A DNA stretch of 64,000 nt from Membranipora membranacea. Taxonomy: Eukaryota; Bryozoa; Gymnolaemata; Cheilostomatida; Membraniporidae. The DNA lies in NCBI GenBank assembly GCA_914767715.1, contig OU612065.1:33914001-33978000 (forward strand). The letters run 5' to 3'. The translations under genes and the position numbers were made by a program. Below the pieces are notes generated by a model, which did not search any database, was not told the DNA's origin, and was given only the letters and a program-made list of their open reading frames with translations. Shown in pieces: positions 1,531 to 63,317 of the stretch (the stretch's first letter is position 1; each line of letters starts with the position of its first letter).

Positions 1531-1671
1531 TCTAGGATCACTCACCAGCCTAGAGGTGCTGAGGTTAGATTGTAATGAATCACTGACCGAGTTACCAGAT
1601 GAGATCGATGGATTGAAGTGTCTGCGGAAGTTATATGTACGAAGGTGTGGCCTCACCAGTCTGCCAAGCAG
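1531..1671 (+). CDS. LRR exon, copy 1 of the duplicated pair
   Basis: This 141-bp exon encodes about two 23-residue leucine-rich repeats (LTSLEVLRLDCNESLTELPD, then GLKCLRKLYVRRCGLTSLPS). Acceptor ttatag and donor gtaaat flank it. It enters with one base of a codon and leaves after AG, the same phase as exon 5909-6049 and the Roc-COR exon, so such exons can be added or skipped without frame change. It is the first recognisable part of the Roco-caspase gene in this window. The paralogous exon is diverged at the solvent-exposed positions but keeps the leucine frame. Confidence 0.75.
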
Positions 1672-4600
1672 GTAAATATGATATATATATATATATATAT
1701 AGAGGGAAACTGTGAATGTGTCAGCTAACTTGGCCAAAGTTATGTCCACAGAGTAAGGATACAGAGGTGAAACTTTAATGAGAGTCATAGTGCCTTCGGT
1801 TTTGGATTCACTGTGGAAAAATCATCAATCTGAATATTTGCCAGTTTTACTAAATATATTAGTTACAATGGCAATTTGTGACGCAGACATGCCTACCTAT
1901 GATAGGTCATAATTCATTCTGTATGTTACCTAAAGACTGATTTCCAACTTTCTTGAAATGTTCAATCTGCAAGCTATACGCCATATTGTTGTCATTTTTG
2001 TTAGGATACATAGGCTATGAGTTATCTGGGGTTTTAAAATGAGTTTTATCATATAGATTTATATGCGGCTTGGGTCAGTACACGGACATTTCTTAATTTT
2101 GATGACCGCCCTGGCTATCAATTGCCACATGTATATCATGATAAAACTTATTTTAAAAAACATGGAAAAATTTTGGAAATCAGTTTTAGGTTATATACAG
2201 AATTAATTATGACCTATCATAGGTGGGTCTGTCAGCATCACAAATTCCCATTGTAACTTATAGAATCAGTAAGATTAGCAGGTATCCAGATTGATGATTT
2301 TCCCACAGGGAATCCAAAACCGAAGGCACTATGATTATCATTAAAGTTTCCCCTCTGTATCCTTACTCTGTGGACATATCTTTGGCCAAGTAAGCTGACA
2401 CAATCACTTTTGTGGGTTAAGGTTATGATACCAGCGTTGACCGATTTAGACATTTTATATACCGTTGGAATGCTGCTGAGCTACTGATCGCTAATAGCTC
2501 ATCAAAAATGTGATTGGATGATGTTGCGTCATTTTATCGGAGAAATGAGGCCGAAAAGGCTGTTTTTAGCAAAGTGGATGGCTGCGCTACATTGATTGCT
2601 AGAAATTTCTAAACAGGTTACATTCATTCTTAGAGACATAGTTCATCCTAATTTAAGGTGGAAAATAATATTTGATGAGCCCAAAATGGCTTTTTAATTC
2701 ACGTCATAATGCGTGTTGTTTTTTAACTTTGATGATATAATGCTAAATTTTAAGCTACGATTTGAGACAGTTCGAATAAAATAGGGCCATATTTTTTGCT
2801 TTTTTTCCACTATATTGCTGTTTAAATGACACACACCACAAATTTCAGCAGTATATCAAATGTATCAATATCAGCATAGACCATCAAAGGTAGATACGTT
2901 TTGCGCCATTTATCAATAACGTCAAACATGCTGTCAAAAGGTCCAGCACTAAAGACAGACAAATTTATTTTGAAAATTCTCACATACGAAGCCGCTTTGA
3001 TTAAGCATGGTACAAACAGGAAATGCCAACAGAATACGGCACTATGCATTTGTCTTCCTCGAATTATACCACACAGAATACCCAAAACAGCCAATTTAAG
3101 GGGCTTTTCAAGGTGTTTTTCGGCATTCTGTGTGGTATAATTCGAGGAAGACTAAAACATAGTGCCATATTCTGTTGGCATTTCCTGTTTTTACTATGCT
3201 TAATCAAAGCGGCTTCGTATGTGAGAAGTTTCAATATAGATTTGTCTGGCCTGAGTGCTGGACCTTTTGACAGCATGTTTGACGTTATTGATAAATGACT
3301 TAGTTGGTTAAAATTGCAAGTGTTGTCTCTGTCCGAGGACTGAGGAATATCAGTGCCTTAAGGGCGCGGCCGCCGTATTTGTCGGCAAGTTGCTCTCAGT
3401 TTGCAGGCAGGCCGGAGCATACCTGGGGCGTCATGTGTCATGAGCCCAGTAGACCGCAGCGGGATTCGAAGCCGGGACCTCCAACGCTTGCGCGTCAGAG
3501 GGCAGGCGCTCTAAACAACTGTGCTACCTCCTACTCCTTGTCTAGTAGTAACAGTAAAGTAAACCTGATAAAGTAGAAAAGAAACTGTAGTCTGGAAGCT
3601 GTCACGTAAAATATTGAGATATGACGGCATCTCAACTACCACGTTCCATCCTATTACCTAAGCTTAGCCAGTTGTTTTCATCAATCAGTCACCAGCCTGC
3701 ATATTGCTATATTACTGTATTTTTCTGTATAATAAATTTTGTGTGTGTCAGGATGTAAAGCAAAGCAGTTAATTGAATGCATATGAGAAGTTTGGAACAG
3801 CTGTTGGATATCACATGCTGCTATAAACATTATTTACATCAAAACATTAGATCATTTTTCAATAAATAATACTAATACTGAGTGCAAAGTTACCTCGCGT
3901 ACCATTCTAACTAATAGTAAAAAACTATTAAAGGACCAAAGCAATATATAGTGTAGCTAGTGCTGCAGTAGCCTGTCTTGACAAGCTTTGTTCGGTGGGG
4001 GTGGGGGAAAATGCAAGAGTTGACAAACTTTGTTCTCCACCCCAACCGAACAAAGCTTGTCAAGACAGGCTAGTCCTGCAGTAGTCATGCAACAGTTTTA
4101 CACTGAAAGATTCATAGCACTTCTGGGTAACAATCGTAGAAATCGTCATCCTGCTGACCTAATGAATATATGCCATGTACTGTACAAGTATAATAGACTA
4201 GCACTTTAGAGCTTCCTATTTTCCTTCCACACTGGAACCACTCACACCAGTGGATAAAAAAACTCTTATGATGAGGGTTACCATAACAAACTCCATATAA
4301 ATCCCTCTAGTTGCTAGTATATACACCAACACCAGTTAACTGCAGTTCTCTAATTGTGTACTACTGTGTAATTGTTAGCACTCTGTGTGTATGGACTATC
4401 GAATCCACCTGAGCAATCAACTGCATTATGTGTCTTGCAAAGGTTTTGTCTAAGATTTTGTTTTGAGCCGTGAAAAAGTGGTTGGCATACTTTCAAATTA
4501 TTACGACTGTCTACTATTCGATATGAAGTAGGTGAAATATGATAAGGATTCGGATGAAATCCAAAATATAACGCAACAAAATTGTTTCAACTGGTTTTCC

Positions 4601-7600
4601 TCTGCCTAAACTCATCCAGAACATTTCAACATAAAAAGGAGGGGATAACATTTATCACTTTCTATTAGAATCAATATTAACTTGGTCCACTGCAGCAACT
4701 CAAATAGCAGTCCCGCCAATAACAAAGAAGCCAAGATCTTACATACCTTCCCTTGAACTGGAGCATAAGAATAATTATCCCGACAAATCATACAATAGAA
4801 TCTACAATAGATTCGATGTAGCTTCGATTATCTTTATTATTTATGTCAATTATCTACAAACTCCACTACTAAATTAAATGTATAAATAGTTGCAATTTTA
4901 TATTAGACATATCAATCTATGTGTAAGTCCGCTGACACAATGAGTTTTGTAGCCACTTATATAGTAAAAAAAAACCTTTAATATTCTCACTGAATCTTGT
5001 GTTGTTCAATCATCGTTCCAATTTTTTATTAGCTGTATAATAGAACTTCACTCTAATTATCAGAACCTAGTCACTAAGTTAACCTGGTCCTGGCATTAGC
5101 TGTTTGATGTTATAAGTTCCTCTAAAGTATGTCTCCAATTATTTGAGTCACTGAAGTACTGTATGGCATAAATTAGTCATGCTCAACCAGCTCTTCTTGG
5201 TTAAATTTATTGGATTTTCCATTGATCCGTTTCTTCAATATTCAATTTTCGGAATCTGGAATATTATCATAAAATTCATAATCTTCAAACTAAAGATGAC
5301 CCTACAATTTTCTATTTTCCTTAAAAGCACAGCGATGAAAGAATGTGATTTCCCAATAATCTGTTTAAAGCAGAAGTTAAATAATAGCATACTATTCACT
5401 TTCAGGAGAGTTGCAAAACGTAGACACTGTCTTTGATTTATCATAGAGAAAAATCACATCCGCTATCGAAGAATTTCAGATGAGAAAACTTTTATCACAT
5501 TACAGAGAATAACAGATATTTTGCTCCATTACAGATATTATAGACATATCGTCATAAACCAAATTTATTTAAAATTATTGTCTGCCGTGCTGATGGTCAG
5601 AGTTTTGGGTAGACAATACCCGAGAGTTAGAATTTACAATACAAGTATATAATTTATTGTAAAGTTATCAATACAGAATCACAACCCAAGTATCTATAAT
5701 CAATCTGAGATGCGCATAGTCTCAAAACCTTACATGTAGGGTTAGGACTTCAGCTAGTTCAGGCTGGATCAACAGACTAACTGGTTTAGAGTGACGTTAT
5801 CAGGGAAGTATCGACAGATTTACTGCCATGTTCTTATTAAATACTGCAAAAAAAATACATTTACCTCATCTCATCACATCACATCACAATCTGTGCTCTC
5901 TGTTATAGTCTAGGAACACTCACCAGGCTGGAGTACCTGTGGTTAAGTGATAATAAAACACTCACAGAGTTACCAGATGAGATCGGGGGATTGAAGAGTC
6001 TACGGACATTAAATGTATCAAAGTGTGGCCTCACCAGTCTGCCAAGCAGGTAAATATGATATATATATATATATAGAGAGAGAGGGGAAACTGTGATTGT
6101 GTCAGCTAACTTGGCCAAAGATATGTCCACAGAGTAAGGATACAGAGGTGAAACTTTAATGATAGTCATACTGCCTGCGGTTTTTGGTTCACTGTGGGAA
6201 AATCATCAATCTGAATATTTGCCAGCTTCACTAAATATATTAGTTACAATGGCAATTTGTGACGCAGACATGCCTACCTATGATAGGTCATAATTCATTC
6301 TGTATGTAAACTAAAGACTGATTTCAAACTTTTTTGAAATGTTCAATCTGCAAGCTATTCGCCATATTGTTGTCATTTTTTGCTAGGATACATAGGCTAT
6401 GAGTTATCTGGGGTTTTAAAATGAGTTATATCATATAGATTTACATGCGGCTTGGGTCAGTACACGAACATTTATTAATTTCGATGACCGGGCCCGGCTA
6501 TCAATTGTCACATGTAAATCATGAGAAACTCATTTTAAAAAACATGGAAAAATTTTGGAAATCAGTTTTAGGTTAAATACAGAATGAATTATGACCTATC
6601 ATAGGTAGGTCTGTCAGCATCACAAATTCCCATTGTAACTTATATAATCAGTAAGATTAGCAGGTATCCAGATTGATGATTTTCCCACAGGAAATCCAAA
6701 ACCGAAGGCACTATGATTATCATTAAAGTTTCCCCTCTGTATCCTTACTCTGTGGACATATCTTTGGCCAAGTAAGCTGACACAATCACTTTTGTGGGTT
6801 AAGGTTATGATACCAGCGTTGACCGATTTGGACATTTTATATACCGTTGGAAACCTGCTGAGCTACTGATCGCTAATAGCTCATCAAAAATGTGATTGGA
6901 TGGCGTTGCGTCATTTTATCGGAGAAATGAGGCCGAAAAGGCTGTTTTAGCAAAGTGGATGGCTGCGCTACGTTGATTGCTACAAATTTCTAAACAGGTT
7001 ACATTCATTCTTAGAGACATAGTCCATCCTAATTTTAGGTTGAAAATAATATTTAATGAGCCCAAAATGGCTTTTTTAAGTCACGTCATAATGCGTGTTT
7101 GTTTTTTAACTTTGATGATATAATGCTAAATTTTAAGCTACGATTTGAGACAGTTCGAATAAAAAAGGGCCAAATTTTTTGCTATTTTCCACTATTATTG
7201 CTGTTTAAAATGACACACACAAATTTCAGCAGTATATCAAATGTATCAATATCAGCATAGACCATCAAAGGTAGACACGTTTTGCGCCATTTATCAATAA
7301 CGTCAAACATGCTGTAAAAAGGTCCAGCACTAAGGACAGACAAATTTATTTTGAAAATTCTCACATACGAAGCCGCTTTGATTGAGCATGGTGCAAACAG
7401 GAAATGCCAACAGAATATGGCATTATGTATTAGTCTTCCTCGAATTATACCACACAGAATGCCCAAAACAGCCAATTTAATGGGCTTTTCAAGGTGTTTT
7501 TCGGCATTCTGTGTGGTATAATTCGAGAAAGACTAAAACATAGTGCCATATTCTGTTGGCATTTCCTGTTTTTACTATGCTTAATCAAAGCGGCTTCGTA

Positions 7601-10600: not shown

Positions 10601-13600
10601 AGGAAATCATATATGCTGCCTCTGGCAGCATACCGGAATATGCGCTCAATATCAGCACATTTCAAGTCGGAAAACTTGCAACGAGGCTTCCGGCGCATGT
10701 TGAGGGCTAAATCACGCCACAGCCGACACACACTTCGTATCCTTGTCAGACTTCTGAGATCGACGGAACATAACTGAAGTAGGAGCATAATCACTAGTAG
10801 AGGCAGTTCATTGATATGAAGTAGAGATCTATAAAATATTAGACAGAAAAGATGAATCACACTTTCATATCGTAATCAGATCGGTATAAATCTCCCTCCC
10901 AGTGAAATGCATTCTTATAACCCTAATCACAATGATGAAGTAGGCCCTACATACACACAAAATATATCACTTCCTACTATATATCTTCTTATTTCCCTGA
11001 TGGTAATTTTAAAAGTAGCAATATAACATCAAGTGGATTCGGTATAGATATTGTAAATGAATAGTGCCATTTACGTACCGTTCCTCAGCTGACTCCTTTG
11101 ATGATGGAGTTTCCTTATCACTGTCAGTGGTCTTTGGCAGACAGGTTGCTTTTCGCTTCACTTCTACAGTGCTGGTACTACAATGGTAGAAATCAAAATA
11201 CATGTTATCAAGAACGTAATGCATCTTTGCCCTTGATCAAGAAACACGTATCGACAATATATAGGCAATGACGGTCAGAATAAATAGTCTTTACTTTGCT
11301 CTTTGTCTTTGATAAGTATGTTTTCAGGGGCCGCGCAGCTTACCATATTTTCAAGCTCCTGTACCGAGCTTGATGAATTTATTCACTGTTATTCTGACTT
11401 GGCAAGGAAAACCTACCAAGATTTTGAACCTGAAAGCTGGAAGCGACAATAGGAGTTATCCTTCCATGTATTTAGGCCTTACCTGATATGAAATGCTGAA
11501 TTCTGTGCTTTAATGCGGCTGCTGTTAGACTCGATAATTGTATGATTGATGGAAATGTCTGTTGCTTCTGATGTACTGGCGCTACAACCATTCAAAGAAA
11601 AAGAAAATTTAATCATCGGTTCTATCACTGCCCCGGTTTACACAGTCTTAATTTTGCAACATATTCATATAGGTGATTGAAGTTATTTGTAAACCAGGAA
11701 GCATCTCTAGTTTGTCTCCTGTCCACTACTCATTGTATCACATGCCATTTATACTGTATAATTGAGTCATCGTGGCTTGCACAAAATAAGTTTTACTATG
11801 TTTGGGTTTGAACATTAATGATCATGCCATTAGAATGAATCAATGGAAACAAAATTAAATACCTGGTTGTAGGGGAGGGTCTTGTGGAATCTGTTGTAAT
11901 CTGCCTTGAACTCTCAACGATTTGATGTATGTCCCTCATGTCATTCCTAAGGACTACATAATGGGTACCTCTCGTCTCGTCTTGATGGCCAAGTACAATC
12001 GTGGGCAGCGCTCTATTAGATGCTCTGCTTCCACTTGGTGTTAGTATTGTTGATCCATGTTGAATAGTAGAATCAATGAGTATCTGCACATTGAAGATTT
12101 CTGCAGCTACCTGGAGCGTTAGATGGTCGCCAAATTCCGCATTTTGGCTCATCCGTGTGATGTATTCGTTTTCATCCTCCCCAATTGCTTCAGTCCACAA
12201 CACGCTGTTTTGGATTCCGACATACTTGTTTCTCATGAGATATTCAATAACCTCACTTCTGAGTTAGTTCGCCGAACGGTATATTCCTAACCGTTGAATA
12301 GCGTACGCTATGGCTGCAAATTGACAGTTCCCATCCGGTGCTGGGTTGAAAATGGTCGGCGAGGCAAAGAGTTGAGAGCTGTTGCTTATCAGCACGTCCA
12401 ATCTGGTTTGCTGCATTCGTTTCTTTTGGTGACTAAGTGTACTGCCAGTCAGGTCCCTGACTGAAATCCACTTTGTTTTGGCATCGTTATTTAAGTGATA
12501 TTTTACTTTATACATGTACAGTTTTTCATTTCTCTGGATTACATTTCCCATCACAACCTTTGCCTTGGATATTCTTTTGCTGCCTGTCCTTATGCCGTAT
12601 CAGGACTCTGTCATTTATTTCATATGTAGGTGTTTTTAATGACTTGATTGAGCGTCTTATAACTCTCTCATTTTCCTTTCCACTGGCTATTCTTGCCTCA
12701 CTTCGAATTCTCTCAGTTGTGTTCTCGGATGTTGTGAGGAACTTCTCCCGTCCGTAATACACATTTAGTGGACTCCACCAGGCTAGTTCTCCTCGTGGCA
12801 TATCGTTCAACTGGAGTTCATATGTAGGAAGCTCATTTACCCAGTTTGTACCATTGGGATTCGAGATGAGGTAGTACTGCATTTTGTACTTCAACGTACG
12901 GTGGGACCTCTCTACTTTCCCCTGCGACTCTGGGTGATATGGGCTGCTGAATATTTGTCGAATGTCTCTTGCCTTCAGCAGTCTGGACACATCCTGCTTA
13001 AATTCTGTACCTTGGTCATTCTGGACTATCTTTGGGTTACCAAACGTGTCAAATATCGCCTTCAGCTCCTTTGCCACATTTTTTGAAGATTTTCTGGTCA
13101 ACGGTCTCAGCCAGGTGTATCTAGAGAAGACATCGAGCACAGTCAGAATATATCGATATTCTTTACCATTATGATACGCCGGGTTGTTACGAAAGTCAAC
13201 TAAGTCGATTTGTACTCGCCACATGACGGTCCTACAGCATATCGGTGTAATGGGAGCCTTGTTGCTGAACCTAGCAGACAGTCTTTGCCGGGTGGTTGAG
13301 TGTTGTAAAGCAGATGCAATAGTTGCCTCAGAGAATCCTACGTATGTGCCTTTCATTTTTAACTGCAAGCGTCGTGGTCCAAGACCCTTCTCAATATCAA
13401 AGTGTTTAGCAATCACCGCTGCCTTCTCGGATTGTCGTATCACTCGTAATCCATCTGCAAAAAATCAGTAAAATATGGCATTACAGTCTGAGACATATTG
13501 ACAATGTAGTATGCAGATGCTTTGTGTTGTGTGATTAAACACCTAGGGACTCCAATCAAAGTCATGGAGATATGTTCTTGTTCAAATTCACACCAAATTT

Positions 13601-16600
13601 CATACACCTGGAGTTGTCTTCTATGTATTTTGATATCAATTGACTCCAACAAAAAGGGCGGACAACTCCAATATTCCACACAAACTACATTAGATACTGC
13701 TATTGATATGAATGCAGTATGAATGAGTAAAGTCATAGTGTATGCACCAAGGTTATTTCAATTAAGTTTCATTGCCATCTTCTTGTTTCATGAATGAGGA
13801 TGTGGAGACAAGAAAATTCATCACAATTGATCGTACTTCAGCGTAATAGCCAATTAACACTAGGGGTGGAATGAGACAGTCTTTGAAAGTCAAAACAAGA
13901 TGAGAAGGGACAGCATGAAGTAAGGACAAAGTAGGAACAATTCTATCATTTTCTTCCCGCTTTGAAAATAAGAATGGGGAACTTAGTTTTGTGTCAACGA
14001 GACTGCGTCACCCCGCCTCGAAACCCATCTCGAAACGGAGGGGCCTCTCATTCCTAATGAAGACAATTAATAGTTATGCTTTACCAAAAATAAACATTAC
14101 CCGGAGAGACAGGTAATTCGAAAATGCTGTGCTACAAATTGGGCTGTGTGTAATGAAATATTCAATGAGTACATTGTGAATTAGGCTCTGTTTACCAAGG
14201 AGAAGAATCTGTTCTGAGTCTTTGATTTCCACGCTCCAACGTCCCCTGTAACGCCAGTGATGAACGTATGCAGAACGCTCCAATTTACTGCGGTCCTTGA
14301 CTGCGGATTTAAAGTTTCCACTCTCTATTTTCATAATCACATCATATATGCCATCATTCATCACAGTAGGCTTTCTCTTTCCTCTAGCATACACACTGTC
14401 GCAGCATGTGAATATCGAAAAGACGAGTAGTAACATCACTCTGAAAAAGAATAAACAAATTTCATTGATTACGATTCAAGTTATAGGTTTCATCAATGAC
14501 TTAGATCATTGGTTTCATGTATAATACTATTATTTGTAGCCGAATCGCTTAACATCCGAAACCTGGTAACTATTGTCAGTTCCTTGCCAGGATTGATGAT
14601 GGAATGCCAATGACAGGCAGTAACTTTAAAATGCTTGTAGAAACAATGAGATGTAAATGAGATGTAAATGAGATAGTGATTGTTTTTGCTCACCTGAGGA
14701 GTGAAGTTGACATCTTGGTCGCTGCAATGAACAGCAATAACTGATGAAAAATTCTACTTTCTTTTACACTGTGGTATATTGGGGTAATAATGTCCAGCTG
14801 TGTCTGTTTATTTTTGACTTCAAGCTTTTGTTCAAGTTATGAAACATTATGATTGATATTTTGTGCATAAAAAGAGAGGTAAAATTAACACGTATTTATT
14901 AATTGGTTGAATGTACAGTAGAATTAGAACGATCAAAGTCAACTGTGACTATCCTATGCTACAACGTTTTTCACACATAAGCTTGTATATCTCTTTCATT
15001 ACAACTATTTGAAACTCTCTCCGTAAAAATAGTTCACATGATTGTCCGAGTTTATGTAAATCCTAGCCACCCTTAATGACGGCTCCAAAAAATAATAAGG
15101 TGGGAAGCATCAGTAATATCATAGTTTGACCATCGTGAATCTTGATGTGCTCTGGCTGGCTTAATCAATACCATGACTCTTCCTACTAGACATATAAAGT
15201 TTGGTAATATTGTAGAGTACAATGAGATTGATTGTTAATGCCCATATAAAATTTGTTAGAGATAATCTCTCTTAGTGGAAGCTTCTTATCAGTTTCAAAG
15301 TTTATAATTAAGTTGTCTCCCCTACACAACTCAATGCCTTTGCATGGATTTTCATAGGATTTACATTTAAAACCCTATTATGACAATTTGGAGTGCAAAA
15401 AAAACACCAAAAGGCGCATATAACACAGTAATAGCGCTGTCAGATGATCTTACCTCTCTATTCTCCAATACAATTGCCGGCAAGTAAAATTATTACATTT
15501 GAGGGAAGAGATTATTACACTTGTAGGTGATTTATTTTTTATTACATTTGAGGGAAGAGATTATTACAATTGTGGGTGAAGCATTTTATTACGCTTGAGG
15601 GAAGAAGTTATTACACTTGTGGGTGGTTATTACATTTGAGGGAAGAGATTATTACATTTGTGGGTGTTATTACAAGTTTTGAAAATTATTACACTTGTGG
15701 GTGTAACAGTCCTCCATGAGCGATGCTTTATAGAAGCAAATTATCACTATCACATCTCTCAAAATCATCACTCACTTGGCTGTTCAATTAGACAAATTCG
15801 CTCACTCAGAATTTATATAGTTCCATCAAAGACTGAGCCATTTCTGAGCGAGACCATAGAGTGAGCGATCAGATTGCGATTTTGGCTGTTTTTAATTGGA
15901 AAAAACCCCCCTAAAACCCTTCGCTCTCCTTTAAAATACGATGCAAAAGCTAATAGCACAGTTGTTATAATCCAAGCAGATGAACCAGGTCAGAAATTTC
16001 ACTTTTAAGCCACCCTGTATGACGAAAAAGCACAATTTAATCAAGAAGCATGATGGGATCCTTGAAAAATACTCATGGTCAATCATGGCTCAATACTAAA
16101 AAACTTGATAAAAAGTATTAAAAACCCTAAGAGAGTTTCAAAATTGCAGAGTGTGAATTTTATCAGGAAACATTTGAAACAACATGTTTTGAACCTAACA
16201 AATAATGGGGGTTTGTCAACATAGTTTTGAACATAAAAGTTTGTCATGATGATACAAATGGGTGTTTGAAATTTGACGACATAAAAATGACAGAAAAACA
16301 TGAAAGAACTGCGAACAGGGCACAATGTTTTGTTGAAAAATCATTTGAACTCCATCTGAATTGGTAAACAAGGTATATAAGTCAACTTCGTCTACTTTCT
16401 GACAAAATTTATAATGAATCTGCTTCCTACAGTAGGAAGCAGATTCATTATAAATTTTGGCTATATTATTATAAAAATGGCCATATAGAACATTAGTCTC
16501 AGAACACATGATTCTTTTGATAGACAATTTCTCACAGGACTGGTCACGAATTCACCAAATTACAGACACTAATTTTGCTTTTGAAACATTCATCGAAAAC

Positions 16601-19600
16601 AACTCTCCCATTATTGAAAATTCAAGCAAGAAGACTAGTGCTAAAACCCAAATGCTACATTTTAAAAAGCCATCGATGACCACAGGATCATTGGAACTTA
16701 GAGAAAAGTGTAAAAAATTGCACATTAAATCTAAACAAGAACAAGAGTTTCCAATACAGAAGCCAGCTAACCAATAAATTGCCTTCCAATTAGTCCTTCT
16801 AATGATATTTAGGAATTGTTAACAATTGCAGGTATTTCAAGGCGTCAGCTATTTTATTTTTCTTTTTACAGCATGTCAAACTTAGAAAATTTAAGGCAAC
16901 TGAATATCAATAAGAATATAGCTCTACTCTCAATTCCCGCTGGAGTATGTCGACTCGATACACTCAAGTCAATAGAGTGTGAAGACTGTGCATCTCTGAC
17001 AAGTCCTCCTTATGCTGTCTGTAGTCAGGGGCTGCCAGCAATGAGAAAATACTTTGCCGATCTGGAAGAAAATGTTGAGCAAAACATAAAGTTTGTTCCA
17101 ATAACTGTTATTGGTCAAACTATGGCTGGTAAAACCAGCCTTGTTCGGTCAATGAAAGAAAATAAACGGGCTTTGACCACTCGATGTAACAATAGCAAGC
17201 TAGATGAGGCCACCAAAGTGATCAAGGTGTGTGAGGTAGACGTTGATGAAAAATTCAAACTCGTATTTCATGACTTTGGTGGGCAGGCAATATATCAGTT
17301 TGCCTACCAATTGTCACATAGATCACAGTATGTTCCCATGCTTGTCATAGACATTGCTGAATTTGCCCGACTTGTAGCTGAACACGGAGAAGAAAATGCC
17401 TGTGAGACAGTCTGTTTTACATGGCTCTCCCACCTTTATTTGTCCTGTCCAAAAGCAGGCCAGCCTTTCGTGGTGCTCACCCACTGTGATCTTATTGATA
17501 ATGAAACCTGCAAAGCGAGAGTGAGTCAGTTGATAGAAGTGACTGAACGTCTACGCCTTAGGTTAATAGAGGAGGAGAAAGCCATAGAACCAATGAACAG
17601 TCCAATCTTCATGATGGAGAGTTTTCGTGATACATCTCAGCCTCTTCTCTCAAAACACACACCCCTTCTCATATATAAAGGTTCTGGAACACAGGTAATC
17701 CTCGATCTAAAAACCTTCCTTGTGTCTATTGGATTGCCTCTACTCACAAATATTCCAGGTAGCTGGTATGTTCTGATGAATTTGTGTGCAAACAGCACAC
17801 AGCCATATCTTACGCTGGGTGAGCTAGACAAGCTCTTCTCTAATGACAAAGATCGCTTCATTCTTCAGTACCTTCAGGAAATCGGGCGAGTGATGTGGTA
17901 CAGAAATCGAGTCAAACTAGCAAACATTGTGTTTCATCGCATTGAGCTGCTCACACACCTAGTTGAGTTGCTCTATGATCACTGCAGAGAGGAAGCGTGG
18001 AATGAGCGTAGTTTTCTGGCATTTCAGCATGATAACATGGGAATCAACCAACGGCAATACGATCATATGGTCCAATCATACCTTACTACTGGAGTGATAA
18101 GGGACATTTTGCTGGTCAACCTTATCAAAAAAGAGTCAAAATTGCAACCTGAGCTGGCAATCGAAGTACTGAAGGTCTTCCATCTGGTTTGTGGCCCAGT
18201 CAAGAAGGACAGTGAAAGTCATTATATCATCCCATACTTCAGTCCTAGAGAACTCACAATCGAGGAATCTGGAATGTACATTCTTTTGAAAGTTGACATA
18301 TGTTTTAATGGACTGGCTATTCCTAGCTACGTATACCATTTGCTCGCTGCAAATTATGTTGACCTCCATATTACCTCATACAATACTATTAAGGCTGGCT
18401 GCAATGGTGTTTGCGTGAGGGAAAACAATGGCACAATCAAGTACCTACTTCATAACCATATTGAGAGAACCTTTTCGCTCCTGATCCTGACCCCAACAAA
18501 ACATATCGCTAAATCCTGGGACAGCCTGCTGCACACCTTGCAACATTTAAGATCCCAACTGGAACAAGAATGGAAGGGCGCTCACTATGAGATAGTATTC
18601 TACTGTTCGCACTGCCTGCTCACTAAGAAGGAGAACCCAACCACTCAAGTCAATCCTGCATGGCTCAACAATCAATATCAACCTTATACTGGCGATGAAA
18701 CTTGTGACTGTATTCAACTTCAATCTTCAACCAAAAGCCCGACTACTATTCCATATCCACTGTTCTATCCATGTGAGTACAGTTTCACCAACTTATGTAT
18801 GATTGATATGGCAATGCAAATTCTGGTCTGCTCTTTCTGCCTTCCTCTATAGATACCTTAATTCAAATTGTATTTCTGATGCTTGCTATATTATGACATA
18901 CTACTTGCTACTATATGCTTGATAGGTAGCACCATCACAAAAGAAGGGGTTCAGACTTTAGATGAGTACTTGTCAGGCTTCGAAGTGGCTTCTCATGAAT
19001 CACAAATAGAGGATATTGTGAAGGAAGTAAATTCTGAGAAAGTTCTTATTTACGATTCAGATTCATATCCAGTCACGGCTGACCCAATGAGTAGTACACA
19101 GAAACATAAGGTAGGAAGATGTTGTTGATTTTCACCTTTTATATGTAATATTTTCAAGATGAACCCAACTGTTTTCACTCATAACCTGCATACAATAAGA
19201 TGGTAGTAAATTTACTGGATTTAGTGTGCCTACACACGCATTAGTCAGAGTCTTATTTTTTTGCAGAAGGTGTACAAAATGTCTGAGACTCGCGGAAGAG
19301 CGCTGATTATATCGAACACCTGCAATAACACAAGGAAAGGTTCAGAGCATGACTATCGGAATATTAAAGGAATGCTAGAGAAGTTTGGATTTATAACTGT
19401 AGGAGGTCACAAAAATTACACTGCAGAGGTAATGGCAATGTTTTTGCTCCGCCATTGTTTAAGCGCTCAAACGGTGACGGGATGCTGGTAGAGGCATTTC
19501 ATTATCAAGAGAAAGTGGTTGATAATGAAATGCCTCTACCAGCATCCCGCCAACGTTTGAGCGCTTAAACTAGCTCCGCCACAATGAAATAAACGCATTG

Positions 19601-21874
19601 TCACTATAGGAAAAGTATTAATATTTGATCTAAAATTATAATAGTTAGAGGTGACTGTAACTCAGTTTGTAAGGTAGTATAGATATTTCATATGAGAGAG
19701 CCAGTGATCAATTCCCAGCAAATGCAGATGTATAAGAAGAAGCGACCAACCAAAGCAGCAGCATCTTGTTATCAACTTGATGCTATTTCTTCTTCAAAAT
19801 CTTTTTTTTTGCTGAAAATTAGTATCAACTTTTCAGGATAAGCTGCTAAATCTACTTTAATTCTCAAAATCCGATCAAAATTAATCAAGTTATCAAAGAA
19901 AAACCTGGATTTTTGACAGTAAAGCAATAATCGCATCATTGCTTCTACAACTTACGATGACGTTACGTCGCCCCACAATTAAGTGCCTCACTTCAGCTGT
20001 ATATGGTGTCCTGTCTAGGTTTGTTATTAAGTCTATGGTGAGATCCTATTTTTTGGCTTCAGGCTATATACGTATACTCGAATCACTTATTTGTTGTTTG
20101 AATAGATGATCGTTACGGCTATCCATTCAGAGACACAGCTAGTAGACTGGGAGACAGGAGAATCAGTACACAAACATCTCAACTCATTTGTGTTGGTCAT
20201 CACAAGTCATGGTCATGAAGGGTCTCTGTCTGGTTCCAACGGTAAACATCTCGTAATCACAGATCTTATGGATCTGCTCTCATCTGAGAATTTCCCCGCT
20301 ATGAGAGGGAAGCCAAAGCTTGTCATCATACAGGCTTGTGCTGGCAGTAAGTTTATAAACTTGATCAATTATGGACAGTCAAATATTGTTCTAAGGGAGT
20401 AACTTACTAAAAGTTCAACGATTATTTTTTAATTTCCATGTCCTTGTCATTTACGTCTGCATTCTCAGGCAGCGATTTACCGATGGTATGACATACACTC
20501 AGTAGAAAATTTGGGCATAAAAAATACTCTAAGTATTTGCTCTTATACTCATAAGACAAATTAGTTCTCGGTGAAAGTCAAGATTGTCTCTCTACTTGTA
20601 GGTAGGAAAGAAACACTTCCAGGAGACTTGCCCCCTTCTCAAGCACCACCCAATCAGAATCAGCTAGAAGTAGATCAGCCTCAACACAGCAATGGAGCCA
20701 CAAATGAATCCCCTTCTACAGATCCTCATGATAACCCTATATCAGACTTCATCATTATGCAGTCCAGCTTTGATTGTAAGTTGTGAGAGACAATATTCCC
20801 TACTTTCTAATTGTGATGGTAGATGTGTTTGTATTGAAATGAACATAATTGTACTTTATATCACTGACAACCAGTTTGAAGGTTGTCTTGGTTTGTTCAT
20901 GATTGAGTTATTTTAAATTATGAACAGTAGGACACCCAACTCAATCTGACGGGCACAGCTGAGCTGAGGCATATCCATCTTCTTTGTTTGAGTGATGTCA
21001 TCGATCAGTTATTTTAACAGGATATCCCAGCCTTTGGCATGCACAACTCATTTGAACACTTACAGAGTATGATAACTAGCCACTTGGTCATACTAGGCAA
21101 TAGTAGGAAATGCAAAAACAATTTTTTGTGTTCTTTTGCAGCATTCAAATCACATCGAAGTCCTAAAGTTGGCTCGCTGTTCATCCGCTGCCTGGTATCT
21201 ACATTCTATAGATATGCTCACAGAGATCATCTCGAAGAACTGGCAGCAATTGTAAGTGATAGATCTTACTGCAGTTTTAGTCAATGTATGATGCTTGTAA
21301 ACAATTTTTACACAATCAATCGAGTTTTTTGCAGTACAGTTATTAATTGTCTCAACAAATTGTTGGTTAATGCTTGAGAGTTTAGTAAGACTTGATGTAA
21401 GCATGTGTATTTTTATAGCATAATCTCAAGCTGAATCAATCAAGCACAAATACAACACATGTTTTTTTAGGGTGGGGGGTAAATGGACTGAATAATACAT
21501 AGCATGTTAGTCACAGCTAAGTAAATGATTCCACCCGCACCTTTGTGACGGCCATTGGCTTATTTTACAGGTCAGAGAGACTGTAGTAAAGGCTGGAGCA
21601 CAGAGAACAGAATATCTGCAAAGAATCGGAGGGCAGCGGTATCCCTCTATGCCTCAGAGTAGATGTACATTTCCAGGTAATAAGTTCTATCTGCAGCCTG
21701 GAATCAATATGAGAACAGAGGACCACCCAGAATCACTCAGAAATCCTGTGTTACGCAAACCTACAGCTACAAGGATTCACACAGAACCTGGTATGTATGA
21801 TGTTATGTATGATATAGAAGAAATGAAAATCATAAAAACTTTTTAGTCGTTTCAATGCCGTTGCGCCACTTACG

Positions 21875-21946
<72 letters not shown>

Positions 21947-22544
21947 ACAGTTTCCTGTCTAGGTTGAGGAAGTTTTTATTTTTACCTGATTCTGACACTG
22001 CCTCAGTTTTTTCTCCTACACACCCGCTGATATGTCTGTAACTTGTGAATTAACCAAAATATAAGGTACACATATATTTTTTGAGTAATGAAAAAGCATT
22101 GTGCAATAATACATATCATGCAATATTTATTAGTGCTAGAGATGCGTTAGACAAAGAGTGGCCCAATGGTTAAGGGTGCGAACTTGCAAACTTTGAAGAC
22201 CGAGTTTAATTTTCAGCCTGGCAAATGATAATGTTGAAAATAAGATGCAATTAACATGTTATGCTTTCTACCTGATGCTGCCACAAATTATTTTCTTGCC
22301 CACCCACTGATATGTTGTCATGAGGGAACAACTTGAAAATTCACCAAAAAAAACATGAGTGAAATATGATTGGCCTATGGTATGGAGAAGACATTGTGAT
22401 ATCTTACCATAATCTACAATATTAATTGGATTTTTCTCTTCTGCAGACCTGATACATACATATAGAACCGGAGAGACAGGGCCGAAGAAGACTTATTATC
22501 AGTGGTCAGTAAAGAGAAACTCAGTAAAGAGGAACTCACCATGA
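1531..22544 (+). CDS. LRR-Roc-COR-caspase fusion gene (Roco family GTPase with C-terminal caspase), 5' partial
   Basis: Predicted coding exons are 1531-1671, 5909-6049, 16872-18772, 18926-19110, 19267-19428, 20106-20346, 20602-20775, 21142-21251, 21571-21790 and 22447-22544. All junctions have GT-AG ends and keep one reading frame, giving at least about 1,120 residues. Domain order is LRRs, Roc GTPase (P-loop GQTMAGKTS, DFGGQ, THCD), COR, a linker, then a caspase with p20 (SHGHEG histidine, QACAG cysteine) and p10 (VGSLFIRCL; end KFYLQPG). Roco proteins are GTP-regulated scaffolds that usually carry kinase or death domains; caspases are Asp-specific cysteine proteases. I infer a receptor-like GTPase switch directly coupled to a protease. 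The first exon here starts in phase 2, so the true start is upstream. The intron between 6049 and 16872 carries a whole DNA transposon. A polyadenylation signal AATAAA lies at 22916-22921. Fusion of neighbouring genes by my exon joining is possible but phases argue against it. Confidence 0.75.
1711..2407. mobile_element. Fold-back (palindromic) element A, copy 1
   Basis: The left arm, from GTGTCAGCTAACTTGGCCAA, is matched in reverse complement by the right arm ending TTGGCCAAGTAAGCTGACAC. Arms are about 300 bp with a short centre near 2050-2090. Short ORFs inside are shadows of the arms. No transposase is visible, so it is probably a non-autonomous fold-back or long-TIR MITE. Confidence 0.65.
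2909..3297. mobile_element. Fold-back element B, copy 1
   Basis: CATTTATCAATAACGTCAAA at the left is matched by its reverse complement ending at 3297. Arms are about 165-175 bp around a centre near 3097. It encodes overlapping short ORFs on both strands for that reason only. Confidence 0.65.
3345..3550 (-). mobile_element. tRNA-derived SINE, minus strand
   Basis: In reverse complement there is an A-box-like stretch (GTAGCACAGTTGTTTAGAGC) and a B box within GGCTTCGAATCCC (about 3458-3470), separated roughly as in a tRNA. The head does not fold as a clean tRNA and is followed by non-tRNA sequence. The same element recurs at 7725-7930 in the duplicated block. Confidence 0.6.
3968..4073. repeat. 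Imperfect hairpin with TTGACAAG arms
   Basis: Arms of about 35 bp: TAGCCTGTCTTGACAAGC on the left and GCTTGTCAAGACAGGCTA on the right, with a G-rich stem continuing to a roughly 35-nt centre. The arm core CTTGTCAAGACAGGCTA recurs at about 57436-57452, so this is a dispersed repeat. Confidence 0.65.
4074..5764. other. Unique spacer between duplication copies; no gene recognised
   Basis: AT-rich intronic sequence of the Roco-caspase gene. Short ORFs on both strands near 5179-5444 overlap each other and have no splice or homology support. Confidence 0.5.
5909..6049 (+). CDS. LRR exon, copy 2 of the duplicated pair
   Basis: Same length (141 bp), phase and splice sites as exon 1531-1671. It encodes LTRLEYLWLSDNKTLTELPD and GLKSLRTLNVSKCGLTSLPS. 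It arose with its flanks in a segmental duplication. The next exon of the gene is 10.8 kb away because fold-back elements, a SINE-bearing insertion and the 6.8 kb integrase transposon fill the intron. Confidence 0.75.
6093..6789. mobile_element. Fold-back (palindromic) element A, copy 2
   Basis: Same palindromic structure as 1711-2407, carried along in the segmental duplication. Confidence 0.65.
7290..7678. mobile_element. Fold-back element B, copy 2
   Basis: Counterpart of 2909-3297 in the second duplication copy, with the same arms and centre. Confidence 0.65.
7725..7930 (-). mobile_element. tRNA-derived SINE, minus strand (duplicate copy)
   Basis: Copy of the SINE at 3345-3550 with a few substitutions; A and B boxes are retained. 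Confidence 0.6.
8144..8570. mobile_element. Inserted element with tRNA-like head and 9-bp TSD
   Basis: GATGTAAAG occurs on both sides of this segment but only once at the matching place in duplication copy 1 (about 3752-3760), so the segment is a transposed insertion with a 9-bp target-site duplication. Near the left end lies a minus-strand tRNA-like head: B box GGGTTCGAGTCCC in reverse complement at about 8205-8225, and an A-box region at about 8270-8290. A decayed plus-strand copy of the same head follows at about 8311-8360. It resembles a SINE dimer or an inverted composite. Confidence 0.65.
8888..9273 (+). repeat. Left terminal inverted repeat with tandem GTAATAA array
   Basis: The outer 220 bp alternate two short units, CACCCACAAxTGTAATAA and CTTCCCTCAAxTGTAATAA, about 12 repeats in all. 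The inner part is unique and ends GGGGAGACAAC. It is mirrored at 15312-15708. Confidence 0.85.
9274..10422. other. Left internal non-coding part of the integrase transposon
   Basis: Sequence between the left inverted repeat and the F-box exon. A 60-codon minus-strand frame (10269-10451) overlaps the end of the F-box exon in another phase and includes GLRHWLDKRLHYFGETK; it may be the original C-terminus if a frameshift lies near 10440. Otherwise nothing is recognised. Confidence 0.45.
10423..14713 (-). pseudogene. Transposon gene: integrase - OTU-like protease - F-box, with frameshift and stop
   Basis: Minus-strand exons are predicted at 14713-14694, 14440-14196, 13454-11863, 11581-11483, 11177-11079 and 10828-10423; every junction keeps frame. 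The N-terminus starts MSTSLLRVMLLLVF and looks like a signal peptide. The integrase core shows D in QIDLVDF (about 13200), D in QNDQGTEF (about 13010) and E in SQGKVERSH (about 12915). A chromatin-organising GPY/F-like tail follows. The OTU-like domain has PDGNCQFAA (Cys near 12330) and GTHYVVL (His near 11960). The last exon opens with an F-box (INELPLLV to VCRLWRDLA). Defects are a one-base frameshift near 12555 and a TAA at 12264-12266 inside the OTU domain. OTU proteases cut ubiquitin, and F-boxes recruit Skp1-cullin ligases. The exact gene end is uncertain, because another frame opens at 10451. Confidence 0.7.
14714..15311. other. 5' non-coding region of the transposon gene
   Basis: Lies between the predicted start codon (14713-14711, minus strand) and the right inverted repeat; presumably carries the promoter. 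No motif was identified. Confidence 0.4.
15312..15708 (-). repeat. Right terminal inverted repeat with tandem GTAATAA array
   Basis: Reverse complement of 8888-9273: begins GTTGTCTCCCCT and ends GTGGGTGTAACA. Small differences between the arms (such as unit number and a CCGGCAAG segment) show they have diverged since insertion. Confidence 0.85.
15714..15912. mobile_element. MITE copy (GGTCTTTCAATTAGA family), left end damaged
   Basis: Shares with 25917-26160 the internal strings TTATCACTATCACATC, TATATAGTTCCATCAA and GAGTGAGCGATCAGATTG, in opposite orientation. The right end is CCAATTAAAAACAGCC in reverse complement. The left inverted repeat is absent. It directly abuts the right TSD of the integrase transposon. 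Confidence 0.6.
15913..16871. other. Intron end before the Roc-COR exon
   Basis: Non-coding apart from an unsupported 89-codon frame (16508-16777), which I do not recognise. It contains the perfect palindrome at 16404-16458. The polypyrimidine tract and acceptor tttttacag end at 16871. Confidence 0.5.
16404..16458. repeat. Perfect 27-bp-arm palindrome with 1-nt centre
   Basis: The left arm ends CTGCTTCCTAC and the right arm begins GTAGGAAGCAG, with a single A between. Every base of the 27-bp arms pairs. Confidence 0.9.
16872..18772 (+). CDS. Large exon encoding last LRR, Roc GTPase and COR domain
   Basis: The acceptor tttttacag precedes a 1.9 kb open exon. It starts with the last LRR segment (NLENLRQLNINKNIALLSIP). 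The Roc GTPase follows: P-loop GQTMAGKTS at 17113-17139, switch II DFGGQ at 17272-17286, and THCD at 17479-17490, matching the THxD base-recognition motif used by Roco proteins rather than NKxD. The COR region begins near GSWYVLMNL (about 17760) and includes YLQEIGRVMWYRNRVKLANI. The donor CCAT|gtgagt at 18772 leaves one base, matching the next exon. The ORF stays open without the donor only to 18852. All GTP-binding motifs are intact, so an active GTPase is expected. Confidence 0.85.
18926..22544 (+). CDS. Caspase module of the Roco-caspase gene (7 exons)
   Basis: Exon 18926-19110 is a linker. The p20 fold starts with VYKMSETRGRALIISN in 19267-19428 and continues in 20106-20346 with FVLVITSHGHEG (catalytic His codon 20208-20210) and KPKLVIIQACAG (catalytic Cys codon 20337-20339; canonical motif is QACxG). 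Exon 20602-20775 is a Gln/Asn/Pro-rich interdomain linker ending in SDFIIMQSSFD. The p10 part is in 21142-21251 (SHRSPKVGSLFIRCLV) and 21571-21790 (KFYLQPG). The last exon, 22447-22544, is a short basic tail. Both catalytic residues and an Arg in the S1 region are present, so an active protease is plausible. A possible alternative donor lies at 21676-21677, inside the 21571-21790 exon. Confidence 0.8.
19457..19570. repeat. Long hairpin in a caspase-gene intron
   Basis: Arms of about 50 bp (GTTTAAGCGCTCAAACG ... CGTTTGAGCGCTTAAAC) with a GAGAAAGTGG loop region; mismatches are confined to one short part of the stem. It lies between exons 19267-19428 and 20106-20346. Confidence 0.85.
19645..19715 (+). 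mobile_element. Degenerate tRNA-like SINE head
   Basis: The A-box-like GTAACTCAGTTTGTAAGGTAG and the B-box-like GTGATCAATTCCC are at tRNA spacing on the plus strand, within the same intron as the hairpin at 19457-19570. Confidence 0.4.
21876..21945 (+). repeat. Uninterrupted CTG trinucleotide repeat, about 23 units
   Basis: Seventy bases of pure GCT/CTG units in the intron between caspase exons 21571-21790 and 22447-22544. On the sense strand it gives a CUG run in pre-mRNA. It is followed at once by CTTACAG, a possible cryptic acceptor. Confidence 0.95.
22148..22225 (+). mobile_element. Degenerate tRNA-like SINE head
   Basis: TGGCCCAATGGTTAAGG resembles a tRNA A box; GAGTTTAATTTTC about 35 bases later is a decayed B box. 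It lies in the last intron of the Roco-caspase gene. Confidence 0.45.
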
Positions 22545-61582: not shown

Positions 61583-61794
61583 GTCAAAACCACTCAGTTT
61601 GTTTGATTATTGTTGAGCAGGAATGTAATATGGAGGATAGTGAGAGATTTATTTAGTTTTCAATCACAATTCAAATTAACAAAAAATATATTATAATTTA
61701 CAACATATGTTTTATTGGAAATATTGAGTATTGAGAACAAATAAAAAATGAGAAAATACGAGACAATGTATTGAAGAGATATATTTTCTCATTT

Positions 61795-63317
61795 TTAAGA
61801 TATATATTGGTAAACTCCTTGAAAGAATATTAGAAACTAGAATTAAAAATCATATTGAAACTAATAACCTACTTCCCCCGTTCCAACACGGATTTCGTAA
61901 AAACTACTCAACTGACACATATCTATTCCAATTAATATCATTCGTTGAACATAACAGAAAGAGTAAACAAAAAGTGGCTGCCCTGTTTCTCGATTTTCAA
62001 AAGGCTTTTGATTCCATCTGGCTTGAAGGAATGTTGTATAGATTGGTGGAGGTTGGTATTCCAATTCAACTTGTTAAGGTGTTTAGAAGTTTTCTATGCA
62101 ACAGAACTGTAAAGTTGCAAATTAATGACTACTGCTCCGAGGGGAAACCACATGTCATCGGCCTACCACAAGGTTCAGTCTTGTCACCAATTTTCTTTTC
62201 TATTTTTATTCGTGACATGGTATCCCCGGAACCAAATCAAATGCCACTGCAGTATGCAGACGATGCAACTATGCTATTTAATGCCCACAACAGTCAAACT
62301 CTCTGCGCAAATATAAATGACACAATTACTAAAATTCATCAATGGTTATTGAAATGGCGACTGAAACTAAACTGTTCTAAAACATCTCTTATTTTTTTCA
62401 ATCCTGAGGGCAATGAAACTCCTATTAAAATCTCAGACAATATCATTTCCCCATGCACCGAAACTAAAGTATTAGGTAGTACTATTGACAATAAACTTAA
62501 ATTTTCTACACACAAAGCCCATGCACAATACTCAATGCAACGAAAATGGAATATGTTGCTGCCTTTTATAAACTCTTTAACACCCAAAACCCTAAGAACA
62601 ATATACAACTCTGTCATCAAACCCTCAGGATTCTATTGCTCTCATCTATGGGACTCTGACAATCAATTAAACACATACAATTTTCTAAAAGGAATCACAG
62701 GCACTCCCCATAAACCACCAGAAGAATTTTTACATGTTGCCACTCAAATACTACCAACTAGACTCGATCATATCAAAGCACGTTTAAACCTTTTCAAAAG
62801 GATGTTCACCATAAATCAGATACCTTGGCATCACACAAACAGCACACTTTTTAAAAATTTTCTTGCCGATGTGTGCCGGTTACTAGGCACCCGTTCTCTC
62901 AAGCACGAGGATGTCAATGCGAAGGACTTTTCCAAAACTCTGATAAATAAACATGTAAAACAACTTTGGCTTTCCTCATGGGAAAGATTTTTTAAAACAC
63001 ATGATTATGGAGTATTATTTACCTCTGATTGTGAACCAAACCTCATTTTTAAAAATCCCCTGCCACTCGATCAAAATAAAAAACTCTTCGGATCCCTATG
63101 TGCTCTTCTCTCAGGCCATAGTAGACTCCAAGCACATATGTTCCTTTTAAAGCTAACCCATACACCCCTATGCCTTTGCTGGCAAGAGGACGAAACATCA
63201 GAGCATTTTCTCTTCGACTGCCACATTAACAACAACCCAAGAGAACAGCTCAATCCTCGCATAGGGGATGGGACAAATATAATAAATTATATAAGCGTAT
63301 GTCATCATGCTCCATAG
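61795..63317 (+). mobile_element. Non-LTR retrotransposon reverse transcriptase, 5'-truncated
   Basis: One open frame runs from about 61801 to the stop at 63317. It starts within the RT N-terminal region (GKLLERILETRI, then FQHGFRKNYSTD). RT motifs follow: ALFLDFQKAFDSIW, GLPQGSVLSPIFFSIFI and the catalytic LQYADDATMLF. A Cys/His end (LCLCWQEDETSEHFLFDC) resembles the C-terminus of Jockey/CR1-group elements. The endonuclease is missing at the 5' side, as expected of incomplete reverse transcription. The frame is intact, so insertion is fairly recent. A 3' UTR continues to about 63450 with AATAAA near 63419. Confidence 0.88.

What the first reader, a model, noticed from the sequence alone, without database searches (positions are those of the whole stretch)
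1531..22544. A Roco GTPase (LRR-Roc-COR) fused in frame to a caspase
Ten exons with compatible phases join LRRs, a Roc domain with intact GTP-binding motifs, COR and a caspase with both catalytic residues. Known animal Roco proteins carry kinase, death or ankyrin regions (LRRK1/2, DAPK1, MFHAS1). I do not recall a described animal Roco with its own caspase. It would let a GTP switch and LRR sensor activate a death protease without adaptor proteins, a one-chain inflammasome or apoptosome.
Basis: partly seen in the sequence, partly recalled or inferred. Interest (0 to 1): 0.92.

Follow-up and report, generated by a model that had tools for sequence, protein, structure and literature searches.

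The report
Bryozoan sensor-switch protein carrying a caspase
A moss animal, a colonial sea creature, carries many dozens of genes that appear to put a recognition domain, a GTP-driven switch and a cell-death protease into one protein, a layout that I did not find reported for animals and that could let a single protein detect a trigger and start cell death.

Summary
Ten exons (1531-22544) join in phase into an open 1123-residue LRR-Roc-COR-linker-caspase chain; four more same-phase LRR exons lie upstream. The genome holds at least 126 related long Roc exons. A caspase match lies within 5 kb downstream on the same strand in 89 of 126, upstream or opposite in none; all five read among the other 37 also carry one. 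In 42 genes the COR exon ends in the same phase and is followed in frame by a similar linker peptide; seven of 40 first caspase exons lack the Met a separate gene would start with. Some annotated Watersipora and Bugula proteins have the same layout; three of eight Watersipora relatives end before the caspase. Roc-COR folds like known Roco proteins; caspase His and Cys are kept wherever read. No transcript across COR-linker was found; one spliced caspase transcript retains sequence before the linker. Most likely a one-chain receptor in which LRR recognition and Roc-COR dimerisation bring two caspases together (inferred). Bacterial LRR-Roc-COR-caspases and amphioxus LRR-caspases are published; I found no animal Roco-caspase in open-licence papers.

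The parts
1531..1671 (+). LRR exon (141 bases, two LRRs), symmetric phase (starts with 1 base, ends with 2 bases of a codon)
   Evidence: splice borders and translation; LRR Pfam hits
5909..6049 (+). LRR exon, same phase as the previous one; four more such exons lie upstream of the window at C1:33897834, 33902779, 33909426 and 33912655
16872..18772 (+). Large exon: last LRR, Roc GTPase and COR; ends PC with donor T|GTGAGT
   Evidence: Pfam Roc, AlphaFold2 model and Foldseek to Roco structures, 70 matching copies in the genome without a stop
17113..17139 (+). P-loop GQTMAGKTS of the Roc domain
   Evidence: read from sequence; AGKTS invariant in 28 aligned sequences
17272..17286 (+). Switch II DFGGQ of the Roc domain
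   Evidence: read from sequence
17479..17490 (+). G4 motif THCD of the Roc domain
   Evidence: read from sequence
18926..19110 (+). Linker exon: begins with a peptide of the form C-x-x-I-T-x-x-G-x-x-x-L-D-x-Y-L and joins the caspase exon in phase 0
   Evidence: similar peptide in frame in 42 genes; same length, no indel or stop in 11 of 11 close paralogues
19267..19428 (+). Caspase p20, first exon (KVYKMSETRGRALIISN...)
   Evidence: Pfam C14; AG acceptor in phase 0 in 39 of 40 rows
20106..20346 (+). Caspase p20, second exon with catalytic His (20208-20210) and Cys (20337-20339, QACAG)
   Evidence: Pfam C14 2.8e-11; His 23 of 23 and Cys 11 of 11 rows that reach the positions
20602..20775 (+). 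Interdomain linker exon with several Asp residues, and first strand of p10
   Evidence: splice also joined in P0031, close to a paralogue
21142..21251 (+). Caspase p10 exon (SHRSPKVGSLFI...)
   Evidence: Pfam C14; the pocket Arg in 10 of 10 rows
21571..21790 (+). C-terminal exon following p10
   Evidence: homologous in P0031
22447..22544 (+). Last coding exon with stop TGA 22542-22544
   Evidence: homologous in P0031

Best explanation
One gene encodes one protein: an array of LRR exons, a Roc GTPase, a COR dimerisation domain, a short linker and a complete caspase. It belongs to a large, tandemly duplicated bryozoan family. Proposed working: the LRR arc binds a cytosolic ligand; ligand and nucleotide state change the Roc-COR dimer; COR-held dimers bring two caspase domains together, which activates them as in initiator caspases; cleavage at Asp sites in the interdomain linker matures or releases the protease, leading to cell death or inflammatory processing. 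Shown here: gene structure, the domains, their conservation, catalytic residues, family expansion. Inferred from established knowledge of Roco and caspase families: dimerisation as the trigger, ligand sensing by LRRs, cell death as the output. I put about 0.9 on the single-chain fusion, about 0.6 on dimerisation-driven activation, and about 0.5 on an immune or self/non-self role.
For: Open ten-exon model; full caspase domain 2.2e-30. Roc-COR exons: 70 of 70 matches free of stops, dN/dS 0.13-0.54 in 11 pairs (dS saturated in some). Caspase Pfam match downstream on the same strand within 5 kb in 58 of 70, upstream or opposite strand 0 of 70; with the matches of the caspase protein P0031 added, 62 of 70, and 27 of 56 further long Roc exons, controls again 0; five of five read among the other 37 carry a caspase or caspase-like domain. 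Same COR donor phase in 42 of 42 rows and phase-0 AG caspase acceptor in 39 of 40; similar linker peptide in 43 of 43 rows, 42 genes. Met not conserved in 7 of 40 first caspase exons. Watersipora P0020, P0035, P0036 (full layout), P0025 (begins inside Roc) and Bugula P0052 (caspase cut short before most of p10). Roco fold. In six LRR exons 8 of 10 concave-face positions vary against 7 of 36 others, Fisher p = 0.0008, positions chosen after seeing the data. Roco dimerisation by COR: PMC6337361 passages.
Against: No transcript crossing COR-linker was found. P0031, a caspase record spliced like a transcript and close to a paralogue, has about 85 bases of intron-like sequence before the predicted linker acceptor at its 5' end; this fits intron retention but also a caspase-only transcript. 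Watersipora and Bugula proteins are annotations, not cDNAs as far as I can see, and of eight Watersipora relatives P0026 and P0038 end inside the linker, P0027 diverges at the end of COR and P0037 stops in the first half of p20. Linker exons show no clear purifying selection (dN/dS 0.89 and 1.88 on few changes). Some copies look damaged: L013 lacks the AG acceptor, L019 changes frame inside the Roc exon. 32 of 126 copies were neither matched nor read for a caspase. Roc Pfam score of the joined chain is just below cut-off.
Confidence: 0.75

Rival explanations
1. Two neighbouring genes: an LRR-Roc-COR gene and a caspase gene directly downstream, co-duplicated as a unit and co-regulated.
For: P0031 5' end reads into sequence upstream of the linker exon; a Met precedes SETRGRAL-type sequence in 33 of 40 rows; no cDNA across the junction found; three Watersipora models lack the caspase.
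Against: No in-frame stop before the COR donor in the 42 rows compared; same splice phase and similar linker peptide in 42 genes; seven rows lack the Met; contiguous annotated proteins in two other genera.
Confidence: 0.07
2. One gene with two products: a full Roco-caspase and, from an internal promoter or retained intron, a short caspase-only form (or a caspase-less form ending in the linker).
For: P0031 begins inside the intron before linker exon 2; an in-frame Met codon exists in the linker of the window copy; Watersipora models P0026 and P0038 end in the linker.
Against: P0031 may be an incompletely spliced fragment cut off by the end of its contig; the Watersipora models may be cut short by annotation.
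Confidence: 0.15
3. A decaying array or assembly artefact without function.
For: Nearly identical neighbours (99-100%) on the same chromosome; some copies with broken splice site or frame; transposon-like frames in the window, one inside an intron.
Against: 70 of 70 Roc-COR matches without a stop, dN/dS below 1 in all 11 Roc-COR pairs, catalytic residues kept in the rows read, same architecture in two other genera.
Confidence: 0.03

Closest known systems
Bacterial LRR-AP-GTPase-COR proteins with caspase as one of at least 24 C-terminal effectors (PMC8195603, section read)
   Same: LRR sensor, Roc/AP-GTPase, COR and a caspase in the C-terminal effector position; multiple paralogues per genome
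   Different: Prokaryotic; one of many interchangeable effectors. Here an animal family in which every copy that I matched or read carries a caspase-type domain. Environmental protein P0086 has another order: LRR-caspase-EAD-Roc-COR-TIR
Animal Roco proteins MFHAS1, LRRK1, LRRK2, DAPK1
   Same: LRR-Roc-COR core (MFHAS1, LRRKs); several Watersipora copies are named MFHAS1 homologs by NCBI
   Different: In the three-group scheme of PMC6337361 (passages) animal Rocos end after COR or carry kinase or death domains; the word caspase does not occur in that review's main text
Amphioxus LRR-caspase and TNFR-caspase hybrid genes (PMC2575513, passages read)
   Same: Recognition domain joined directly to a caspase, proposed as a direct link from recognition to apoptosis; QACXG active site
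   Different: The term Roc has no occurrence in that text
Brown algal LRR-ROCO candidate immune receptors (PMC11378527, passages read)
   Same: LRR-Roc-COR, expanded family, LRR-coding exons of one phase; three members have a C-terminal peptidase domain (IPR009003)
   Different: LRR exons of 72 bases rather than 141; the word caspase does not occur in that text; IPR009003 is, from recall, the trypsin-like PA clan
NLR inflammasomes and the apoptosome (from general knowledge)
   Same: LRR or other sensor plus NTP-driven assembly that activates caspases by proximity
   Different: They use STAND ATPases (NACHT, NB-ARC) and CARD/PYD adaptors; here a Roco GTPase and a caspase in one chain

Membership tests
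Roco family | Roc GTPase domain with G motifs | tested here: met
   Pfam Roc 27.8 bits for the exon, cut-off 27; P-loop, DFGGQ, THCD read in sequence; structure matches Roco
Roco family | COR domain directly after Roc | tested here: met
   Weak Pfam hit (0.027, below cut-off) but Foldseek matches to Roc-COR and COR-only chains; the Bugula member hits COR-A 3.8e-7 and COR-B 1.5e-4, both below the bit cut-off
Roco family | COR-mediated dimerisation and GTP hydrolysis | not testable with these tools
   Needs purified protein
Caspase family (C14) | Complete p20 and p10 with His-Cys dyad | tested here: met
   Pfam 2.2e-30 over profile 1-225 of 233; His 23/23 and Cys 11/11 rows
Caspase family (C14) | S1 pocket for Asp (two Arg, Gln) | tested here: met
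   Alignment with caspase-1; p20 Arg 40/40, p10 Arg 10/10 rows; Gln of QAC read. Assignment of these residues to the S1 pocket is recalled
Caspase family (C14) | Caspase fold | tested here: inconclusive
   Model of P0031 from five sequences: mean pLDDT 62.8, pTM 0.71; fold search not accepted
Caspase family (C14) | Asp-specific proteolysis | not testable with these tools
   Needs assay
LRRK / DAPK subfamilies | Kinase and/or death domain in the same chain | tested here: not met
   None in the 1123-residue chain; exons further upstream than C1:33894001 were not read
MFHAS1 orthology | Groups with vertebrate MFHAS1 in a tree | not tested
   Only the NCBI name of Watersipora relatives points there
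NLR / STAND receptors | NACHT or NB-ARC ATPase | tested here: not met
   No such Pfam hit in the chain up to E 0.1
Bacterial AP-GTPase-COR caspase systems | LRR-GTPase-COR with C-terminal caspase in a prokaryotic conflict locus | tested here: not met
   Same layout but on an animal chromosome

The most novel reading that the evidence does not exclude
Cheilostome bryozoans use a family of around a hundred or more one-chain Roco-caspase receptors, with exchangeable same-phase LRR exons, as their main cytosolic repertoire for recognising microbes or foreign colonies, in place of NLR inflammasomes.
Probability: 0.3. Interest if true: 0.95.

Novelty: new variant of a known kind. Interest (0 to 1): 0.85.

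Why it matters
It would be, as far as my searches of an open-licence library show, the first described animal Roco protein with its own protease, and a large family of them. It makes two questions testable: whether Roc-COR dimerisation can directly gate an effector enzyme (GTPase and kinase share a chain in LRRK2), and how a colonial animal senses intracellular danger or non-self. It also gives a self-contained, possibly GTP-gated caspase for biochemistry.

Tried and rejected

Two-gene reading: tested through splice phase, Met conservation, paralogue counts and other genera; kept as a low rival.

Other effectors in place of the caspase: looked for in five copies without a caspase match; L039, L045, L050 and L051 carry a divergent caspase-like domain (SHG and QAC kept), L052 an ordinary one. 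32 of 126 copies remain unexamined.

Transcript evidence: a 480-residue query over COR end, linker and caspase gave four proteins, three covering linker or caspase parts, one COR, none crossing. Of all 88 proteins returned, eight cross from COR into the linker in one alignment: seven Watersipora (P0020, P0025, P0026, P0035-P0038) and one Bugula (P0052) annotation; P0025, P0035, P0036 and P0052 go on into the caspase in that alignment and P0020 has a caspase by Pfam and by multiple alignment.

Structure of the caspase (P0031, five-sequence alignment) came out weak and its fold search was never accepted, so the caspase rests on sequence. A genome-wide search for LRR exons did not complete and the gene's first exon was not found.

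Literature: searches (open-licence PMC only). I saw the listings, capped: for example 20 of 51 papers, 15 of 216, 10 of 65, 12 of 93; one search found none. No row shown pointed to an animal Roco-caspase. Read: one section and passages of PMC8195603, part 1 of 3 of PMC10290214, passages of PMC7836458, PMC11378527, PMC6337361, PMC3196919, PMC7159879 and PMC2575513. Other papers were seen as listings only.
Full report
What was checked. I rebuilt it exon by exon. All internal borders are GT-AG, the phases fit, and the joined chain is open for 1123 residues up to TGA 22542-22544. Pfam on the joined chain finds one continuous caspase domain (2.2e-30), LRRs (2.3e-19) and Roc (6.2e-6, just under cut-off; above it for the exon alone); COR-A is weak (0.074).

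Species. The window's genome has 339,339,785 bases. Its contigs C1, C5 and C10 have exactly the lengths given as longest scaffold, N50 and N90 for Membranipora membranacea tzMemMemb1.1. So this is a cheilostome bryozoan, not a sponge.

The Roc-COR part. The exon 16872-18772 holds the last LRR, Roc and COR. AlphaFold2 on 28 aligned sequences gave mean pLDDT 85.2 and pTM 0.83. The 20 best Foldseek matches in the PDB are all Roco proteins: Chlorobium tepidum Roco, LRRK1, LRRK2 and Methanosarcina Roco2, including two chains of the COR domain alone. P-loop, switch II and G4 motifs are intact.

The caspase part. Catalytic His is kept in 23 of 23 and Cys in 11 of 11 rows that reach these positions (the window copy and one gene seen twice are among the rows). 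The p20 and p10 arginines that line the Asp pocket in known caspases (assignment recalled; aligned to caspase-1) are kept in 40 of 40 and 10 of 10 rows. The active site reads QACAG rather than QACRG. The predicted fold of a close relative, P0031, was of low confidence (mean pLDDT 62.8) and could not be searched.

A large family with fixed order. A protein search of the own genome with the Roc-COR exon returned 70 copies (70 of 283 candidates scored), none with a stop inside the match. Of these 70, 58 have a caspase Pfam match on the same strand within 5 kb downstream; upstream or on the other strand the count is 0 of 70. Adding the matches of the caspase protein P0031 raises this to 62 of 70. 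A Roc Pfam search (150 of 372 candidates scored) gave 148 matches. I kept 69 by eye: matches over most of the profile in an open frame of 204 to 771 residues. I dropped 79: short matches, and five full-length strong ones in frames of 194 to 276 residues that look like ordinary small GTPases (none of the five has a caspase match nearby). Of the 69, 56 were new, making a union of 126. COR was not tested in these 56 apart from L051 and L052, and seven of them have frames under 600 residues. 27 of the 56 have a caspase match within 5 kb downstream (28 within 6.5 kb), with no upstream or opposite-strand case (which used all 145 matches and 104 of the 126). That makes 89 of 126 within 5 kb. Of the 37 others I read five: L039, L045, L050 and L051 have a divergent caspase-like domain with SHG and QAC kept, and L052 an ordinary caspase. 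32 were not read. By the tool's own statement counts of large families are lower bounds. 87 of the 145 caspase matches are not next to the first 70 copies; part of these fall next to the 56 further copies, and the rest, conventional caspases perhaps among them, were not followed.

Is it one protein? Four lines say yes. First, in 42 of 42 rows the COR exon ends PC with the same phase-1 donor T|GT, and in 39 of 40 rows the first caspase exon starts at an AG acceptor in phase 0; in four of these (L003, L044, L046, L047) the AG lies one codon inside the aligned start, and the exception L013 has AA (L004 and L037 are the same gene). Second, after the COR donor, 43 of 43 rows (42 genes) have an AG followed in the right frame by a peptide like C-x-S-I-T-E-x-G-x-x-x-L-D-x-Y-L. 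41 rows were found by a pattern for the L-D-x-Y-L end within about 1 kb, which alone could hit by chance; the I-T-E-x-G part, not in the pattern, recurs in most. L006 and L038 were seen by eye. Watersipora proteins show a like peptide contiguously after COR. Third, the Met that would be the obvious start of a separate caspase is replaced by Val or Ile in 7 of 40 rows. Fourth, annotated proteins with this layout exist in Watersipora subatra (P0020, P0035, P0036; P0025 begins inside Roc) and Bugula neritina (P0052, EB796_002463, caspase cut short before most of p10). In close paralogues the linker exon never changes length or gains a stop (11 of 11), but it shows no clear purifying selection. 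Roc-COR exons do: dN/dS 0.13 to 0.54 in 11 pairs, with dS saturated in some; first caspase exon 0.09 to 0.44 in the nine pairs where dS could be estimated.

What speaks against. I found no transcript that crosses from COR into the linker. The best transcript-like record, P0031 (JGI, contig of 1731 bases; a transcript by inference, because it lacks the introns), is close to the copy at C10:1.62 Mb. It joins the second linker exon through all caspase exons, but its 5' end runs about 85 bases into the intron before that linker exon's predicted acceptor. That may be intron retention in a fragment or a caspase-only transcript. I cannot tell which, and I keep the latter as the main rival. Further, of eight Watersipora relatives returned, P0026 and P0038 end inside the linker, P0027 diverges at the end of COR and P0037 stops in the first half of p20. 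These may be cut-short gene models or real caspase-less forms.

LRR exons. Six LRR exons (two in the window, four in the 20 kb upstream) are 141 bases each with identical phase, so any number can be joined in frame. Among the six, 8 of 10 concave-face positions vary against 7 of 36 others (Fisher p = 0.0008). I chose the positions after seeing the data, the set is small, and such a pattern is expected of LRRs under structural constraint, so it suggests rather than shows a recognition surface.

Evolution. A tree of 62 Roc-COR sequences puts all 39 Membranipora rows in one supported clade with six environmental sequences, and all 8 Watersipora rows in another with four; Bugula sits on a long branch, and the program warns about long-branch joins. 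So the fusion is probably older than the split of these genera and the copies multiplied separately (inference). Outside these, the profile search reached only distant Roco proteins: bacterial ones and a fish MFHAS1 among the named (only the best 7998 candidates were scored). P0086, an unnamed environmental protein that looks bacterial, has LRR, caspase, EAD, Roc, COR and TIR in that order.

How it most likely works. Roco proteins dimerise mainly through Roc-COR, and dimerisation has been linked to their GTPase cycle (PMC6337361 passages). Initiator caspases are activated by being brought together (general knowledge). A COR dimer with a caspase on each chain would therefore be a ready-made activation platform: ligand on the LRRs and nucleotide on Roc decide the dimer state, and the caspases fire when apposed. 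The interdomain linker has several Asp residues that could serve for self-cleavage (read from sequence; not tested). These steps are inference.

What is known. Bacterial LRR-GTPase-COR proteins with caspase among at least 24 effectors are described (PMC8195603, section read). Amphioxus has LRR-caspase and TNFR-caspase hybrids proposed to link recognition directly to apoptosis (PMC2575513 passages). Brown algae have expanded LRR-ROCO genes with same-phase LRR exons (PMC11378527 passages). No row shown in nine literature searches pointed to an animal Roco-caspase; the listings were capped and the library holds only open-licence papers. I therefore file it as a new variant of a known kind.

Noticed in passing
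window 12526-13464 (-) and 11796-12263 (-): Integrase core domain reading frame and an OTU-like protease frame inside the 10.8-kb intron before the Roc exon: remains of a retroelement-like insertion.
   Followed up: partly
window 61752-63317 (+): 521-residue reverse transcriptase frame of a LINE-like element near the end of the window.
   Followed up: partly
window 28186-28521 (+): Exon with an EF-Tu type GTP-binding domain (4.8e-20), perhaps part of a translational GTPase or U5 snRNP GTPase gene, lying between two receptor copies (the guess at the gene is recalled).
   Followed up: no
L039, L045, L050, L051 (C3:14.5, 18.96, 19.35, 25.7 Mb): Sub-family whose caspase-like domain is strongly diverged: in L039 Pfam C14 only 0.025 on the first half and 2.1e-5 on the second; SHG and QAC kept, p10 different. 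May have altered specificity.
   Followed up: partly
P0035 and P0037 (Watersipora subatra): Annotated N-termini MGAKSSKD and MGISSVCSS resemble N-myristoylation signals, so some family members may be membrane-anchored (motif from recall).
   Followed up: no
L013 and L019: Two of the eleven copies in the window's array look damaged: L013 has AA instead of AG before the first caspase exon, L019 appears to change frame inside the Roc exon.
   Followed up: no
C1:33.62-34.43, 36.0-36.7 and 31.5-32.0 Mb, and clusters on C3, C5, C9, C10: The copies sit in tandem arrays, about 40 to 120 kb apart in the window's array, which suggests recent and continuing duplication.
   Followed up: partly
window 21877-21945: Long GCT run inside the intron between the last two coding exons.
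   Followed up: no
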